DNA from: a virus
Reading direction: 5' to 3' (one strand)
IMG/VR virus record: IMGVR_UViG_3300050821_000267
Location: 1 to 48,084 of that record
DNA length: 48,084 nt
Under the pieces are notes generated by a model that was given only the letters and a program-made list of their open reading frames with translations, searched no databases and had not been told where the DNA came from. The position numbers and the translations under genes are program-made. Each line of letters starts with the position of its first letter. Positions within the stretch are counted from its first letter, which is position 1. This document shows, one piece after another, positions 30,698 to 45,118 of the stretch.

Positions 30698-30940
30698 ATG
30701 ATTTATCTCTGTGCTTGCGGGAATTTCAAATCAGCTTCACCACACCACTCCGCTGCTACTAAGCGATGGGTGTGTTTCCGTTGCAGGCACAGTACAATCA
30801 TTTACCGAGGCTTCCTATTGACTTTGCTACTTCGGCACAAGGCTCACGTGGTGGAAATGGTAGACGCGCGGGACTTAAAATCCGGTGGCTTAGGCCGTGT
30901 CGGTTCGAGTCCGACCGTGAGCACCAACAATAGGAGGTGA
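30698..30940 (+). CDS. Zinc-ribbon ORF that reads through the tRNA gene, 80 aa
   Basis: An ATG with GGAG 7 nt upstream opens MIYLCACGNFKSASPHHSAA and a second Cys pair WVCFRCRHS, a zinc ribbon over residues 1-37. The frame then continues straight through tRNA-Leu (giving the usual GSSPT nonsense of a translated T-arm) and stops at 30940, just before the next ATG. The N-terminal half looks real; the C-terminal half is probably the result of the tRNA lying in or having been inserted into the gene. Confidence 0.4.
   Translation: MIYLCACGNFKSASPHHSAATKRWVCFRCRHSTIIYRGFLLTLLLRHKAHVVEMVDARDLKSGGLGRVGSSPTVSTNNRR
30842..30926 (+). tRNA. tRNA-Leu(UAA)
   Basis: The acceptor stem GCTCACG/CGTGAGC is perfect; the discriminator A and an encoded CCA follow. 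T-arm GTCGG-TTCGAGT-CCGAC. The anticodon loop is CTTAAAA, giving anticodon UAA. A long variable arm (class II) is present as required for Leu. One G-G mismatch occurs in the anticodon stem (CGGGA/TCCGG). It would read UUA, a codon frequent in the AT-rich late genes. Confidence 0.92.
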
Positions 30941-37737: not shown

Positions 37738-38754
37738 ATGGGTCTGCAAGAACTTGAGCAGAAGGTTGCTGCCATCCCCACTCCGGACGTCTTCCAGACG
37801 GCGAATGATAACGCTGTCTCTCCCGTCATCGAGAGCCTAGCCTCTGCGCTGGGTTCCTTCTTGAACCGAGATCAGGTCAAGGAGCTGGTCACCCAGCAGA
37901 TGCATGAGTTCAGTTGCTTGAAGCAGATTGAGCTCAAGAACGGTAAGGTGCAGGAACGTCTCCCCGATACTCCCCGCCACTACCTCTTCCCTGAAATCCT
38001 GTCTGCAGTGAACATCAATGTTCCTGTTGCTCTGATCGGTCCTGCAGGTTCAGGTAAGTCCACTGTCTGTGAGCAGATTGCCGATGCTCTGCATCTGCCA
38101 TACTACTTGCAGAATGGTGTGACCAGTACCCATGAGCTCACTGGTTACAAGGATGCTTATGGTGTGTACCACGGTACTTCCTTCCGTACTGCATTCGAGA
38201 GTGGTGGTTTCATTCTCGTGGACGAAGCGGATACGTCGGAGCCTGCTGCATTCAAGTGGATTAACACTGCTCTGGCCAATGGGAATGCTTGCTTCCCTGA
38301 TAAGCTTGAGCCGGTGAAACGGCATCCTGACTTCCGTATCGCCATGGCTGCTAACACCTACGGGACCGGTGCTGATCGGTTGTACGTGGGTGCTAACCAG
38401 ATCGATGCTTCCACGTTGGACCGGTTCGTGTTCTTCGATTTCGGGTACGACGAGAAGCTGGAGACGTTGCTCGCTGGTAACCAGGAATGGACTGAGCGTG
38501 TCCAGGCTCTGCGTAAGGCAGCGATGGAAGCCAAGGCTCGTGTCGTGATCTCTCCCCGTGCTTCTCTGCACGGTGCTAAGCTTCTCTCCATTGGTTGGAA
38601 GCCTGAGGTCGTGGAGCAGCGTACTGTCTGGAAGGGTATCGACCCTGACCTGAAGAAGCGGATCGAGGACAAAGTTGTCAGTGTTCGTTTAGCCCCTGAG
38701 GGCACTACAGTCAAAACTTTCTATAACCTTGGCAAAAAGAAAAAGGCAGCATGA
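37738..38754 (+). CDS. MoxR/CbbQ-type AAA+ ATPase, 338 aa
   Basis: Walker A GPAGSGKST (101-109), Walker B ILVDEAD (159-165), sensor-like MAANTYGTGAD and an STLDRFVFFDFGYD arginine region. This is the CobS/CbbQ-like group common in phages. MoxR ATPases remodel partner proteins with vWA-like partners; the next gene is the expected partner. Codons are C/G-ending, suggesting strong expression. A GGAGAG-type ribosome-binding site lies before ATG 37738. Confidence 0.85.
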   Translation: MGLQELEQKVAAIPTPDVFQTANDNAVSPVIESLASALGSFLNRDQVKELVTQQMHEFSCLKQIELKNGKVQERLPDTPRHYLFPEILSAVNINVPVALIGPAGSGKSTVCEQIADALHLPYYLQNGVTSTHELTGYKDAYGVYHGTSFRTAFESGGFILVDEADTSEPAAFKWINTALANGNACFPDKLEPVKRHPDFRIAMAANTYGTGADRLYVGANQIDASTLDRFVFFDFGYDEKLETLLAGNQEWTERVQALRKAAMEAKARVVISPRASLHGAKLLSIGWKPEVVEQRTVWKGIDPDLKKRIEDKVVSVRLAPEGTTVKTFYNLGKKKKAA

Positions 38755-38755
38755 C

Positions 38756-39763
38756 ATGGAAGAAAAGTTGATTGGGAATGCGGATGAGATTGCAGAACTG
38801 TACCCAAAACTAACTGGGGATTTCAAACTGATGCAATCCTTCTGGTCTTCTCCCGAGGCATTTGCTGCCAATGTGGAGAAGGCAGGACAGAATAATTCCT
38901 GGAACGACTCCGGTTGGGGCTACGACTCTGGTGAAGACTGGTATGGTACCAAGTCGATGCAAGATGCCTTGAAACTGATCCGAGAGGGTTGGAAAGAAGG
39001 AGCGGAGAAAGCTTCCAGGCTGCAGGGTAAGATCCTATCACAACATCCTTTGCAGCGGAAACAGATAAGCTACGACATCGTTGGGGCGTATCCTAACGTA
39101 CCTCGGGCTGTCGCAGGTAACCCGTTGAACATGCGGGTACCTGATTTGACGAAGGCAAGTAGACGTCCAGTGGTTACACTGATGTCTAACATGGGTGCTA
39201 GTTGTGGGCACTCGTCTGATGAACTCGTCAACAGGGCGGCCGTAGTGGCCGCTCTGGTTGACCAGATCGAAGCTGCAGGATATGCCTGTGAAGTAATAGG
39301 CATGGCTTGGGGAGCAAATAATAATCATGGGATTAAGGTACGTACTAACGTAATCCTTAAGAACAGTAGCCAACCTGTGGATATCACTAGGCTAGCCTTT
39401 GGCTTAGGACATGCTTCCATGTTTCGTAGACTTGTCTTTGCTGAATGGTGTCAAGATCCTTTCACCAAAGATTTGGGAAGTCATCTAGGCTATCCTGATG
39501 CTCTTAAGCCCTCCAAAGAGCTTGCAGAGAACAACGTGTATGTGATACCTTCTGTCCAAGGACACGGTAAGCTCTTCAAGACAGAAGAAGCAGCAGAGAC
39601 AGAAGGACTGAAGTTTATCCTTAGGTCTATGCGAGACCAAGGCTTCCCTATGTTCAAGAAATTGAAGTGGGATGATGATCCTAAAGAGGGCGATGAAAAG
39701 CCTATCCTGTATGTTGAAGCTCCACCTGATTTTGATGATGAGGATGAGGATGATGATAATTGA
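38756..39763 (+). CDS. Partner of the AAA+ ATPase, vWA-like, 335 aa
   Basis: ATG 38756, right after the ATPase stop, is preferred over the in-frame ATG 38729 inside that gene. The N-terminal half has FWSSPEAFAANVEKAG, then WGYDSGEDWYGTKS and LIREGWKEGAEKA. The C-terminal half has a Rossmann-like vWA pattern: RRPVVTLMSNMGASCGHSS, then VVAALVDQIEAAGYACEVIG. The MIDAS DxSxS is degenerate (SNMGAS). A very acidic tail (DFDDEDEDDDN) ends the protein. The pair recalls CobS/CobT-type phage modules; the target is unknown. Confidence 0.65.
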   Translation: MEEKLIGNADEIAELYPKLTGDFKLMQSFWSSPEAFAANVEKAGQNNSWNDSGWGYDSGEDWYGTKSMQDALKLIREGWKEGAEKASRLQGKILSQHPLQRKQISYDIVGAYPNVPRAVAGNPLNMRVPDLTKASRRPVVTLMSNMGASCGHSSDELVNRAAVVAALVDQIEAAGYACEVIGMAWGANNNHGIKVRTNVILKNSSQPVDITRLAFGLGHASMFRRLVFAEWCQDPFTKDLGSHLGYPDALKPSKELAENNVYVIPSVQGHGKLFKTEEAAETEGLKFILRSMRDQGFPMFKKLKWDDDPKEGDEKPILYVEAPPDFDDEDEDDDN

Positions 39764-41824: not shown

Positions 41825-41982
41825 AGTACTTAGTTGATATTGAAGGTTCATTTGAAGTTGATGCTACTAGCGAGACTGCTGCACAGGATATTGTTATGAC
41901 TGTTCTTAACAGTCTTGTGGAGGAAGAGAATACTTCCTTCTTAGCAGACTTCGAAGTTCTGGCTACTAACGAGATTGATTAA
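41821..41982 (+). CDS. Small acidic protein, 53 aa
   Basis: MKYLVDIEGSFEVDATSETA, then VLNSLVEEENTSFLADFEVL. AGGAGA precedes the ATG. Starts in the upstream stop (ATGA) and ends in the SSB start (TAATG). Family not recognised; the coupling to SSB suggests a replication accessory. Confidence 0.6.
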   Translation: MKYLVDIEGSFEVDATSETAAQDIVMTVLNSLVEEENTSFLADFEVLATNEID

Positions 41983-42470
41983 TGGCTGAACGTAAGTCCG
42001 AAGAAATTATATTACACGGTAAGACAAAGTTCTGTAGACCGTATCAGGCAGACGACTACGGTAAGTTTTCAATGCTTCTGTATTTCAAGCCTGAGTCTCT
42101 AGAGAAGTTTAAGTATTTAGGTGTTAAGACTGTATTGAAGAAGGATGACGATGGTTATTATGCCAGGATTAGCTGTCCGGTTCAGAAGCTTATCAAAGGA
42201 CGGATGGTGGGCATGCCTCCCATTCAAGTCATTGACAAGGAAGGTAAACCGTTCCACGACCCCATCGGCGATGGATCTACTGTTGCTGTCAAGGTCGTAT
42301 ACTATAAGTATACCTCTCCGTTGGGAGAGAAGGGAGCGGCTATTCGTTGGACTGGTCTAAAGGTTATGGAACATATTCCTTTTGTTCCTGTAGATCACTT
42401 TAAGGAAGATGAGAAAGCTCAAATAGGCTCTCTCCAAGATCTTCCCGCTACTGTTGAAGAAGGTTGGTAA
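41982..42470 (+). CDS. Single-stranded DNA-binding protein, T7 gp2.5-like, 162 aa
   Basis: An OB-fold ssDNA-binding protein of the phage type. Landmarks: HGKTKFCRPYQADDYGKFSM in the first strand region, VLKKDDDGYYARIS, GMPPIQVIDKEGKPF, then IGDGSTVAVKVVYYKYTSPL and IRWTGLKVMEHIPF. An acidic C-terminal end (PATVEEGW) is typical of SSBs that bind partner replication proteins. The large non-coding tract starts directly after its stop. Confidence 0.82.
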   Translation: MAERKSEEIILHGKTKFCRPYQADDYGKFSMLLYFKPESLEKFKYLGVKTVLKKDDDGYYARISCPVQKLIKGRMVGMPPIQVIDKEGKPFHDPIGDGSTVAVKVVYYKYTSPLGEKGAAIRWTGLKVMEHIPFVPVDHFKEDEKAQIGSLQDLPATVEEGW

Positions 42471-43943
42471 TCGACGGCAGTCTCTCTTCTAGAGAGGGAC
42501 GCGTGTGGTGTAGTGCTCGTATGGGGCTATACTTGACGGTGGACTCTGTGTCGCGACCGTCGCCAATTTGATTAGTTACTTTGGTCGTCTAGAACCGCCT
42601 GTGTGCCTCCAAATAAGGGAGAGTGAAATATCTCTCCTTTGTTTGTAACATGTAAGACCTCAGTCCCAGGCATTGCGTGGCACTAAGACACTAGGGAATA
42701 GGACAACGGTTGTCTACCGTGACCTAAAGAGCCGAGTAATGTGCAGCCCATACCAGTGGCGGAGGGTGTTCTCTAACCCCCACATGATCCAGCACTATGA
42801 CTGGATACTTTGTGAAAGGTGTTCTCGGGCATGTCCGTTTGAAACCTAGTACGTAGGAGTTGCGATCCTACCCGAAACAGAGGTCCATACTCTGGGTAAC
42901 ATCCACGGTTTGTCCGTTTCTGCGGTCAGGTAAGGGAGAAACGCGAGAATACCAGTATGTGCGCCACTCTCCGGTGACAGACGAGTGAGGACTAATAACT
43001 CACCTGCAACAAATAAGCATGTTGCAGAGATCAGTCAGCAATATCCTCTAAGGACGAAGTCCTGTTCAGCATAGGTGGCCCCTGAAGAAGGAAGCGCCAG
43101 ATAAGCGCTGCATAATGCTGAGCCTAATTGTAAATTAGGTTCCTTGGGTGAGCAAAAGAGTGTCAACGCCACCAGGGCTAACAACCCTGGGTAGCAACCA
43201 GAACCTTGCGAGCACGACTCCTGTACGATATCTGGCGTTTGGATGTGGACCAGATTGCTAAGAACTACAGTTCCATATGAGCACTCGCATTGTAGGATAA
43301 CGTAGATGAGAAGCGTAGGTGACGCTGAAAACTGAAGGAATGTCTCAGGTGACGGTTCGACTCCTTCCCCTTAAGAGGGATAGCTCGGTAGCTGAGACCA
43401 GTGCCCCTGGTCTTGTGAGAGACAACTTCCTACGGAAGCTAGTTGGATGCAACCAACATACATACTGGGGTTCGCCGTCCCAGTCCTACGGAAAGTTCTC
43501 GGTACGTGCAGCCAAGATAGTTGGTCCACTAAACGGACTGGCATGCAATCCAAAGCAGACTGTTCTTAACTCGATGACCCTTCTGAGGGCGAGAGACTGT
43601 TAGGGCTCATTACCCCTCCAGGTGGACAGGAAGATGGGTTTGACTCCCAACTCTACATAGGACGCTAGCTAGGGGAAGCCATAGCAGATGTCCGACGGAA
43701 GACCTAGAGAATACGCTATGACCCGAAGTCGGTTTCTTACATAACTGACGAAGTAGGTGAGTCGGAAATCAGTTAAGTCTTCTTGTAGAGAGACTATTCT
43801 TCACCGCACTCGAACCAGAACGGAGGTTGAAATGTGCAAGCGCACTCTGACCGAAGCCGTTCAAAAGTTAAGACTGGTGCCCTGGGTAAGGCCACCTTAA
43901 GTTAACCTTCCGTTGCGTGAGTAGGGAACAATGGAGAAAAACA
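42471..43943 (+). ncRNA. Giant structured non-coding RNA candidate, about 1.45 kb
   Basis: No convincing ORF, but stem after stem. Local helices include CTCTCT/AGAGAG (42482-42496), AAGGGAGAG/CTCTCCTTT (42615-42640), ATCCAG/CTGGAT (42787-42806), GTAGGA/TCCTAC (42853-42871), CTGCAAC/GTTGCAG (43004-43027), AGGAC/GTCCT (43051-43063), CCTAATT/AATTAGG (43123-43139), CCAGGG/CCCTGG (43172-43190) and AGACCAG/CTGGTCT (43395-43413). Longer-range helices: CGCCAGATA (43095-43103) with TATCTGGCG (43229-43237), and AACGGAGGTT (43819-43828) with AACCTTCCGTT (43904-43914, one bulge). T-arm-like pieces occur (GACGGTTCGACTCC, GGGTTCGCCGTCCC). It resembles the GOLLD/ROOL class of phage giant RNAs in size and texture; the family is not confirmed. 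Confidence 0.8.
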
Positions 43944-44255
43944 ATGCCCTACGTTTATATTCCAGATACGCCTCAGACAGCCAGCACCGTGCAGGTTCCC
44001 TCAGGCACAGATCCTTTGAAGGTTATCGAGATTGTAGAACGTCTACGTCGTAAGGACGACAAGAAAAAAGATAAGGCTGCCAAGGAAGAGAAGGAAAAGA
44101 AAGACAAAGAGAAGAAGCCTGAGAAGTTCTATGATCGTAAGTTTAATTTCTTAGAGCTATTTGGTATTACACTACTCATCGGTCCTCTTGTGGGTGTTCT
44201 TGATATAGCCTGCTTGAAGATGTTCCTTAACGCATTACAGACAATTCCAAAGTGA
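43944..44255 (+). CDS. Lys-rich coiled-coil protein with C-terminal TM, 103 aa
   Basis: The ATG at 43944 has GGAG 9 nt upstream and is preferred over the ATG 27 nt earlier. MPYVYIPDTPQTASTVQVPS is followed by a Lys/Asp/Glu-rich helix (KKDKAAKEEKEKKDKEKK, about 45-65) and a membrane segment LFGITLLIGPLVGVLDIACL (about 76-95). It might hold DNA or RNA at the membrane. The stop overlaps the exonuclease GTG start. Confidence 0.6.
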   Translation: MPYVYIPDTPQTASTVQVPSGTDPLKVIEIVERLRRKDDKKKDKAAKEEKEKKDKEKKPEKFYDRKFNFLELFGITLLIGPLVGVLDIACLKMFLNALQTIPK

Positions 44256-45118
44256 ACGAGATTAAAACATTAATACCTGATATCCAGGAACTGGTTACAA
44301 AGAAGAATGGGTGGTTCAATGACGAACTCTCCAAAGACTTTGCTGCGAGCGTTGCTAAACGTGTACAAGACCAGTTTGCAGAGAAAAAGAGAACGCCTGA
44401 ACTCTATCTTAGCCAGATGGGACCGCGCTGTCCTAAAGCACTCTGGCACAGCATTCATACACCGGATCAGGCTGAGAGACTCCCACCGTGGGCAGAAATA
44501 AAGTATTCATTTGGTCATTTAATCGAAGCTCTGGCAATCACTCTAGCTAAGGCTTCTGGACATAAAGTCGAGGGAGAGCAGGATGCTATTACTGTCGATG
44601 GTGTCCGAGGCAGAAGAGATTGTGTTATTGATGGCGCTATATGTGACATCAAATCTTCTAGCAGCCGTTCTTTTCAGAAGTTTAAGGATGGATCAATCGC
44701 TATGGAAGATAGTTTTGGTTATCTGGATCAGTTGGATGGGTATATTTGTGGAAGCCTTCAAGACCCTCTTGTTACAGTGAAGGACCGAGGTTATTTACTT
44801 GTAGTTGACAAGACCCTCGGGCACATGGTATTGTATGAACATGCAGTCAGACTTGACTCGATTAGAATGCGAATTAAGACTTACAAAGAGTACGTTGCTA
44901 GAGATGTTAGTCCATCTTGCACGTGTGGAACCGTTGCCGAAGGAAAGTCTGGAAACATTAAACTCGGTACAAAGGCTAGTTACAGCAGCTATAAATACTG
45001 TTGTTTCCCGAGACTCAGGACTTTCATCTACGCATCAGGACCAGTCTACCTTACCAAAGTAGTGAGGAAACCAGATGTCCCAGAAATTGACAGATATGGA
45101 AACCTCGTCTACGCCTAA
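44252..45118 (+). CDS. PD-(D/E)XK exonuclease (Cas4/RecB-like), 288 aa
   Basis: Starts at GTG 44252, overlapping the previous stop (GTGA). Signatures: FGHLIEAL (88-94, the GxxxE helix), GRRDCVIDGAICDIKSSSSR with D123 and the D132-I-K134 catalytic pair. Cys60 (GPRCPKALWH) plus three or four Cys near the end (SPSCTCG, YCCF) resemble the Fe-S Cys arrangement of Cas4/AddB-type nucleases. It probably does the job of T7 gp6 in host DNA degradation and recombination. Confidence 0.8.
   Translation: MNEIKTLIPDIQELVTKKNGWFNDELSKDFAASVAKRVQDQFAEKKRTPELYLSQMGPRCPKALWHSIHTPDQAERLPPWAEIKYSFGHLIEALAITLAKASGHKVEGEQDAITVDGVRGRRDCVIDGAICDIKSSSSRSFQKFKDGSIAMEDSFGYLDQLDGYICGSLQDPLVTVKDRGYLLVVDKTLGHMVLYEHAVRLDSIRMRIKTYKEYVARDVSPSCTCGTVAEGKSGNIKLGTKASYSSYKYCCFPRLRTFIYASGPVYLTKVVRKPDVPEIDRYGNLVYA

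What the first reader, a model, noticed from the sequence alone, without database searches (positions are those of the whole stretch)
42471..43943. About 1.45 kb protein-free, hairpin-packed tract: candidate giant phage non-coding RNA
In a genome where genes overlap by a few bases, 3% of the sequence carries no convincing gene but has perfect stems every 30-80 nt and clear long-range helices (43095-43103 with 43229-43237, 9 bp; 43819-43828 with 43904-43914, 10 bp with one bulge). Several loops are tRNA T-arm-like. Known giant phage RNAs (GOLLD, ROOL) are several hundred nt to about 1 kb and lie in similar places; this tract is longer and could be a variant, a fusion of two RNAs, or a new class. 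It lies between SSB and a Lys-rich membrane protein, so it may be made early to middle in infection and could bind a phage protein or form a large RNA assembly.
Basis: partly seen in the sequence, partly recalled or inferred. Interest (0 to 1): 0.93.

Follow-up and report, generated by a model that had tools for sequence, protein, structure and literature searches.

The report
New giant structured RNA in phages
About sixty-five related but uncultured phages all carry, at the same place in their genomes, a 0.7-2.9 kb stretch that makes no protein but is preserved by evolution as a folded RNA of a class not found in RNA databases, ending in a tiny conserved gene whose protein always stops after two prolines, a sequence known to slow ribosomes.

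Summary
Window 42471-43831 carries no conserved protein and has 17 short perfect hairpins against 7.0 expected. Sixty-six related IMG/VR phages keep a protein-free, GC-rich tract at the same place, between an SSB-like gene and a Lys-rich membrane-protein gene (0.7-2.9 kb, median 1.5 kb). In six clusters of relatives the tract shows strong covariation: 55 stems with two or more compensated pairs against about 3 expected, while a coding control shows none. G.U exceeds A.C 24:6, so the sense-strand RNA is what is selected. The window tract shares the family's hairpins, which have invariant loops and covarying stems, including TCCGGTGACAGACG...GATCAGTC and CAGATAA. No Rfam family matches, GOLLD, ROOL and OLE included, so this looks like a new class of giant phage RNA. 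Unexpectedly, a short ORF ending Pro-Pro-stop (window 43832-43900) closes the tract in 68 of 68 genomes, against 7.2 expected. It is a candidate ribosome-arrest leader for the membrane-protein gene. Function and expression are untested.

The parts
42471..43831 (+). Body of the large structured RNA (5' and 3' ends of the transcript unknown)
   Evidence: No conserved ORF; syntenic protein-free tract in relatives; covariation in six clusters of relatives but not in a coding control
42706..42720 (+). Hairpin ACGG-TTGTCTA-CCGT, family loop YTGTYTA
   Evidence: Hairpins with this loop and a stem of at least 5 bp: 12 in tracts vs 0.5 expected, 10 distinct stems; same element as model R1 positions 97-111 (not significant alone)
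42853..42871 (+). Hairpin GTAGG-AGTTGCGAT-CCTAC
   Evidence: Same 9-nt loop with different, covarying stems in L017, L037 and L076; 4 seen vs 0.4 expected
42970..43039 (+). Family signature TCCGGTGRCAGACG ... GATCAGYC; R pairs with Y; in the window two extra hairpins (42985-43003, 43004-43027) are inserted in its loop
   Evidence: Exact match in the window; 3-bp helix with 9 doubly changed cells vs 3.2 in shuffles, 0/500
43093..43109 (+). Hairpin AGCGC-CAGATAA-GCGCT
   Evidence: Invariant loop apart from one variable base, covarying stem in 19 sequences including the window: 18 doubly changed cells vs 5.3, 0/500
43172..43202 (+). Hairpin CCAGGG-CTAACAA-CCCTGG followed by GTAGCAACCAGA
   Evidence: Same loop type and 3' flank, different stems, in L044, L045, L049, L055, L108, L109
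43603..43615 (+). Hairpin GGG-CTCATTA-CCC
   Evidence: Invariant loop CTCATTA, covarying stem in 19 sequences including the window: 22 doubly changed cells vs 5.2, 0/500
43635..43649 (+). T-loop hairpin TGGG-TTTGACT-CCCA
   Evidence: T-loop hairpins with stems of at least 5 bp: 87 in tracts vs 3.7 expected
43822..43826 (+). Shine-Dalgarno GGAGG of the short ORF
   Evidence: Sequence; a Shine-Dalgarno is found before the ORF in nearly all relatives
43832..43900 (+). Short ORF MCKRTLTEAVQKLRLVPWVRPP-stop, candidate ribosome-arrest leader peptide
   Evidence: ORF ending Pro-Pro-stop at the same place in 68 of 68 genomes vs 7.2 expected; preceding residue Arg or Gln in 54 of 68, through synonymous codons
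43944..44255 (+). Membrane protein: Tyr/Pro-rich start, Lys/Glu-rich middle, C-terminal hydrophobic segment with GPxVG
   Evidence: A protein of this kind follows the short ORF in most relatives; alignment A3; no PHROG or Pfam family
41982..42470 (+). SSB-like gene upstream (flank)
   Evidence: Homologues at the same place in relatives; SSB role inferred from position and from the acidic DIPF-type C terminus of outgroup homologues; no family match
44252..45118 (+). Cas4-domain-like exonuclease (flank)
   Evidence: phrog_1990, E 1.2e-17

Best explanation
The tract encodes a large structured RNA of a new family, read in the same direction as the replication genes. Shown: in this clade of podovirus-like phages natural selection preserves base pairing over much of the tract while the sequence changes almost completely; the window copy carries the family's hairpin modules; an ORF ending Pro-Pro-stop sits at its 3' end. 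Inferred: it is transcribed by host RNA polymerase (I found no phage RNA polymerase among the proteins scanned) as part of the polymerase-SSB-RNA-membrane protein-exonuclease operon; it folds through many short hairpins with fixed loops (T-loops, CTCATTA, CAGATWA, YTGTYTA) that act as docking points of a compact RNA particle, as loops do in GOLLD and ROOL; and a ribosome that pauses at Pro-Pro-stop sets how much of the Lys-rich membrane protein is made, which could bind the RNA and hold it at the membrane. The docking, the particle and the membrane link are the speculative steps.
For: Synteny: ORF-poor stretches between SSB and exonuclease in the relatives; length 701-2885 nt, median 1501, GC higher than the rest of the locus in 66 of 67. 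Covariation: 95 blocks, mean z -2.47, 736 compensated pairs vs 420 by column shuffling; the exonuclease gene of the same phages gives z -0.56 and 131 vs 140. 55 non-overlapping stems with at least 2 compensated pairs vs about 3 expected; single departures are G.U 24, A.C 6. In one 153-column domain 17 of 32 pairs have compensated changes, and a covariance model of it finds the same domain in other clusters on the + strand (E 9e-8, 3e-7, 5e-5). Loop-fixed, stem-variable hairpins including the window's. Pro-Pro-stop ORF. Membrane protein next in line.
Against: The window tract has no significant sequence similarity to any relative, and model R1 does not find it; its membership rests on the signature, shared hairpins, synteny and the short ORF. 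Its folding energy is ordinary. No loop-loop partner by plain Watson-Crick pairing was found for three of the loops, so the docking idea has no direct support. No expression data. A long regulatory leader of the membrane-protein gene would look much the same.
Confidence: 0.62

Rival explanations
1. A very long cis-regulatory 5' leader: the RNA and the Pro-Pro-stop ORF form one attenuator that controls the membrane-protein and exonuclease genes, with no free RNA product.
For: The leader ORF, its Shine-Dalgarno and a GC-rich hairpin after its stop (51 of 67 within 65 nt, about 15 expected) are the anatomy of an attenuator and lie directly before the next gene.
Against: 0.7-2.9 kb is far longer than known attenuators need (own knowledge); the covarying domains lie throughout the tract, far from the start codon; in the window the stretch directly after the stop has no strong hairpin of its own.
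Confidence: 0.25
2. A distant member of GOLLD, ROOL or another known large RNA, too diverged for Rfam.
For: Phage-borne, large, sequence-poor but structure-rich, with many loop modules, as described for GOLLD and ROOL (PMC12286853).
Against: No Rfam family matches the window tract or nine relatives even at E up to 10, apart from unrelated noise; none but tRNA at gathering scores in nine more relatives.
Confidence: 0.05
3. The structure acts as single-stranded DNA, for example a replication origin in the replication gene block.
For: It lies among replication genes.
Against: G.U outnumbers A.C 24 to 6 at single departures from covarying stems and U.G closes the CTCATTA hairpin in 16 of 19 sequences, as expected for sense-strand RNA; strand-biased mutation is a caveat.
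Confidence: 0.04
4. Chance: unannotated or decayed genes with no RNA function.
For: No similarity of the window tract to relatives by plain sequence search; ordinary folding energy.
Against: Covariation far above controls and a shared signature.
Confidence: 0.02

Closest known systems
GOLLD RNA (Rfam; about 800 nt, phages and prophages)
   Same: Large structured RNA carried by phages, variable in sequence, many hairpin modules
   Different: No covariance match; longer on average; no nearby tRNA cluster in the window (the only tRNA is 11.5 kb away); Pro-Pro-stop ORF and membrane-protein gene at the 3' side
ROOL RNA
   Same: Large ornate phage/prophage RNA of unknown function
   Different: No covariance match; different gene context; loops not compared directly
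OLE RNA
   Same: Large RNA; OLE is known to bind proteins, and a membrane-protein gene lies next to the present RNA
   Different: No covariance match; partnership with the membrane protein here is only a guess; different organisms
Arrest leader peptides (TnaC-type Pro-stop; RAPP-type ApdA/ApdP)
   Same: Short ORF with its own ribosome-binding site before a gene, conserved mainly at its C terminus, ending in Pro-Pro often after Arg
   Different: Pro-Pro lies at the stop codon and most have Arg-Pro-Pro or Gln-Pro-Pro rather than Arg-Ala-Pro-Pro; stalling not shown; sits at the end of a giant RNA in a phage

Membership tests
GOLLD | Match to the Rfam covariance model | tested here: not met
   No match in the window tract or nine relatives at E up to 10, nor at gathering score in the window or nine more relatives
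GOLLD | Large (about 800 nt or more) phage-borne RNA with covarying helices | tested here: met
   701-2885 nt; covariation
GOLLD | Often near tRNA islands | tested here: not met
   Only one tRNA in the window, at 30842-30926
GOLLD | Homo-oligomeric RNA cage | not testable with these tools
   Needs cryo-EM or mass photometry
ROOL | Match to the Rfam covariance model | tested here: not met
OLE RNA | Match to the Rfam covariance model | tested here: not met
OLE RNA | RNA-binding membrane partner (OapA) | not tested
   A Lys-rich membrane protein follows the RNA; homology to OapA and RNA binding were not tested
Arrest leader peptide | Short ORF with Shine-Dalgarno upstream of a gene, conserved C terminus | tested here: met
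   68 of 68 with Pro-Pro-stop; Arg/Gln before it in 54 of 68 through synonymous codons
Arrest leader peptide | Exact RAPP motif | tested here: not met
   The window ends VRPP; residue before Pro-Pro is Arg in 27 and Gln in 27 of 68
Arrest leader peptide | Ribosome stalling that changes downstream expression | not testable with these tools
   Needs toeprinting or reporters

The most novel reading that the evidence does not exclude
A new class of giant phage RNA that assembles into an RNA particle from loop modules, anchored at the membrane by the adjacent Lys-rich protein, whose synthesis is gated by a ribosome arrested at Pro-Pro-stop at the RNA's own 3' end.
Probability: 0.2. Interest if true: 0.97.

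Novelty: new variant of a known kind. Interest (0 to 1): 0.87.

Why it matters
Only a handful of giant structured RNAs are known in bacteria and phages, and the functions of the phage ones (GOLLD, ROOL) are unknown. This would be a further, larger class, present in every member examined of a phage clade in a fixed place among replication genes, so that function can be asked directly. The conserved Pro-Pro-stop peptide at its end gives a testable handle: a link between such an RNA and ribosome pausing. More than sixty diverged homologues give enough covariation to work out its structure.

Tried and rejected
Sequence search with the tract (blastn, nhmmer) found no homologue. Single-sequence folding energy did not set the tract apart. 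The loops were tested for conserved complementary partners (kissing loops) and none was found. Structural alignment with mafft-xinsi/qinsi was not available, and plain MAFFT of the signature region across clusters aligned little beyond the signature itself. Covariance model R1, from one cluster, finds cluster F and L075 but not the window, so the family has at least two divergent types. A bare 14-base signature scan of viral contigs gave mostly chance hits; those with the phage genes are all in this clade. Rejected: tRNA cluster (ARAGORN; one doubtful tRNA-like call in L053), known Rfam classes, coding region, folded single-stranded DNA.

Full report
OBSERVATION. The window is a 48,084-base virus record. 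Between an SSB-like gene (41982-42470) and a Lys-rich membrane-protein gene (43944-44255) lies a tract without a convincing gene. Two of the larger ORFs there were tested and have no Pfam match. The tract up to 43831 holds 17 non-overlapping perfect hairpins of at least 5 bp, against 7.0 +/- 2.5 in dinucleotide shuffles and 11.9 +/- 2.5 in other windows of this genome. Its total folding energy, however, is not unusual for this genome, so thermodynamics alone would not make the case.

RELATIVES. Searches with the polymerase and exonuclease genes brought in about 100 related IMG/VR loci, some overlapping. Where the interval is complete, all of the closer relatives have a long gap between SSB and exonuclease, with a protein-free tract of 701-2885 nt (median 1501; 67 genomes with the window) whose GC content exceeds that of the rest of the locus in 66 of 67. 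More distant phages lack the Pro-Pro-stop ORF of the TAA/TAG type and, with one partial exception, a long protein-free tract: L063, L065 and L092-L103. In L063 the SSB-exonuclease gap is only 235 nt; L095, the exception, has a 1.0-kb stretch with only short ORFs. In the cultured Lentibacter phage ICBM2 (Zobellviridae) the interval is filled with genes. So the element is universal inside one clade and absent outside it, as far as sampled. The genome itself has podovirus-type tail and internal virion proteins, a primase-helicase and a family A polymerase resembling those of Zobellviridae; among the proteins scanned there is no phage RNA polymerase.

COVARIATION. The window tract has no detectable sequence similarity to the relatives, but the relatives fall into clusters that align among themselves. 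In six clusters, RNAalifold on 160-column blocks gave mean z -2.47 and 736 compensated pairs against 420 after column shuffling, which keeps each column's pattern (blocks overlap by half). The same test on the exonuclease gene of the same phages gave z -0.56 and 131 against 140. A search free of energy rules found 55 non-overlapping 5-bp stems with at least two compensated pairs, against about three in shuffles; at single departures G.U outnumbers A.C 24 to 6 (one-sided binomial about 0.0007, my calculation), which points to RNA of the + strand. In one 153-column domain, 17 of 32 pairs show compensated changes. A covariance model of that domain, searched over 67 sources (1.0 Mb, the cluster's own members left out), hit three further phages well (E 9e-8, 3e-7, 5e-5), all on the + strand inside the tract, but not the window.

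THE WINDOW AS A MEMBER. Several hairpins have an invariant loop and a freely covarying stem across the clade. The window has: YTGTYTA (42706-42720); AGTTGCGAT (42853-42871); the signature TCCGGTGRCAGACG...GATCAGYC (42970-43039), whose R-Y pair is A-U in 11 and G-C in 8 sequences, with one extra C-G swap at the neighbouring pair; CAGATWA (43093-43109; 18 doubly changed cells vs 5.3, 0/500); a CTAAC-loop hairpin followed by AGCAACC (43172-43202); CTCATTA (43603-43615; 22 vs 5.2, 0/500); and a T-loop hairpin (43635-43649). In the window the signature loop has taken in two extra hairpins. The signature with GATCAG occurs in 13 stretches of the viral collection; those I could place by neighbouring genes are all at this locus (L107, a 2-kb fragment, comes from the same contig as L079), and it is absent from one genome for each of 84,980 bacterial and archaeal species. 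For CTCATTA the alignment rows were taken from a list that required a stem; as a check, all occurrences of the extended loops, not chosen by stem, are paired at 16-17 of 17 (TCTCATTAG, four inner pairs) and 19-20 of 20 (CCAGATWAG, three inner pairs), against about half or less in the rest of the genomes.

THE SHORT ORF. In 68 of 68 genomes with the region, an ORF ends Pro-Pro-stop before the exonuclease, as a rule just before the membrane-protein gene (expected 7.2 from shuffles); only 1 of 817 long ORFs elsewhere ends so. It is 11-33 codons long with a Shine-Dalgarno in nearly all (the start codon was chosen by the best Shine-Dalgarno). The residue before Pro-Pro is Arg in 27 and Gln in 27, through eight codons, and the third base of the first Pro codon is free, so selection acts on the peptide. 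The second Pro codon is CCT in 57 and the stop TAA in 67, so the mRNA may matter too. A GC-rich hairpin follows within 65 nt in 51 of 67 (about 15 expected). In the window the ORF reads MCKRTLTEAVQKLRLVPWVRPP (43832-43900). C-terminal proline can slow termination and cause SsrA tagging (Hayes 2002, cited in PMC7246954); CCC and CCU are the slowest codons for diproline synthesis in E. coli (PMC8129111); RAPP arrest peptides are similar at the stalling motif (PMC10951233). Arrest here is an inference.

COMPARISON. GOLLD and ROOL are phage RNAs of unknown function that form RNA cages (PMC12286853). The tract may work in a similar way, but I do not file it as a member of either: no Rfam family matches the window tract or nine relatives even at E up to 10, beyond noise, and none matches nine further relatives at gathering scores except tRNAs. 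The literature searches, limited to open-licence papers, found no description of it. I therefore call it a new class within the known kind 'giant structured phage RNA'.

LIMITS.

Noticed in passing
43832-43900, and at the same place in relatives: Conserved short ORF ending Pro-Pro-stop with a Shine-Dalgarno sequence, a possible phage-encoded arrest peptide family that deserves study apart from the RNA.
   Followed up: partly
43944-44255: Membrane protein family with a Tyr/Trp/Pro-rich start, Lys/Glu-rich middle and GPxVG hydrophobic end; no PHROG match and no convincing PDB relative. Its own start is often poly-proline in relatives.
   Followed up: partly
L013, L014, L021, L074 (cluster A), end of tract: The Pro-Pro-stop codons read CCTCCTTAA, the same letters as the 3' end of 16S rRNA (anti-Shine-Dalgarno); codon variation elsewhere suggests the peptide, not this sequence, is what is conserved.
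   Followed up: partly
L053:11065-11160: ARAGORN reports a tRNA-like fold with an abnormal four-base anticodon inside the RNA tract.
   Followed up: no
37738-39763: Two neighbouring genes matching phrog_249 (listed as porphyrin biosynthesis; a CobS-like ATPase by my own knowledge) and phrog_1909 (unknown function), upstream of the polymerase.
   Followed up: no
30842-30926: tRNA-Leu (UAA), the only tRNA in the window; several relatives also carry a tRNA-Leu or tRNA-Ile upstream of the polymerase.
   Followed up: no
42985-43027: Two hairpins inserted inside the loop of the conserved signature, absent in the relatives aligned; suggests these RNAs grow by taking in hairpins.
   Followed up: partly
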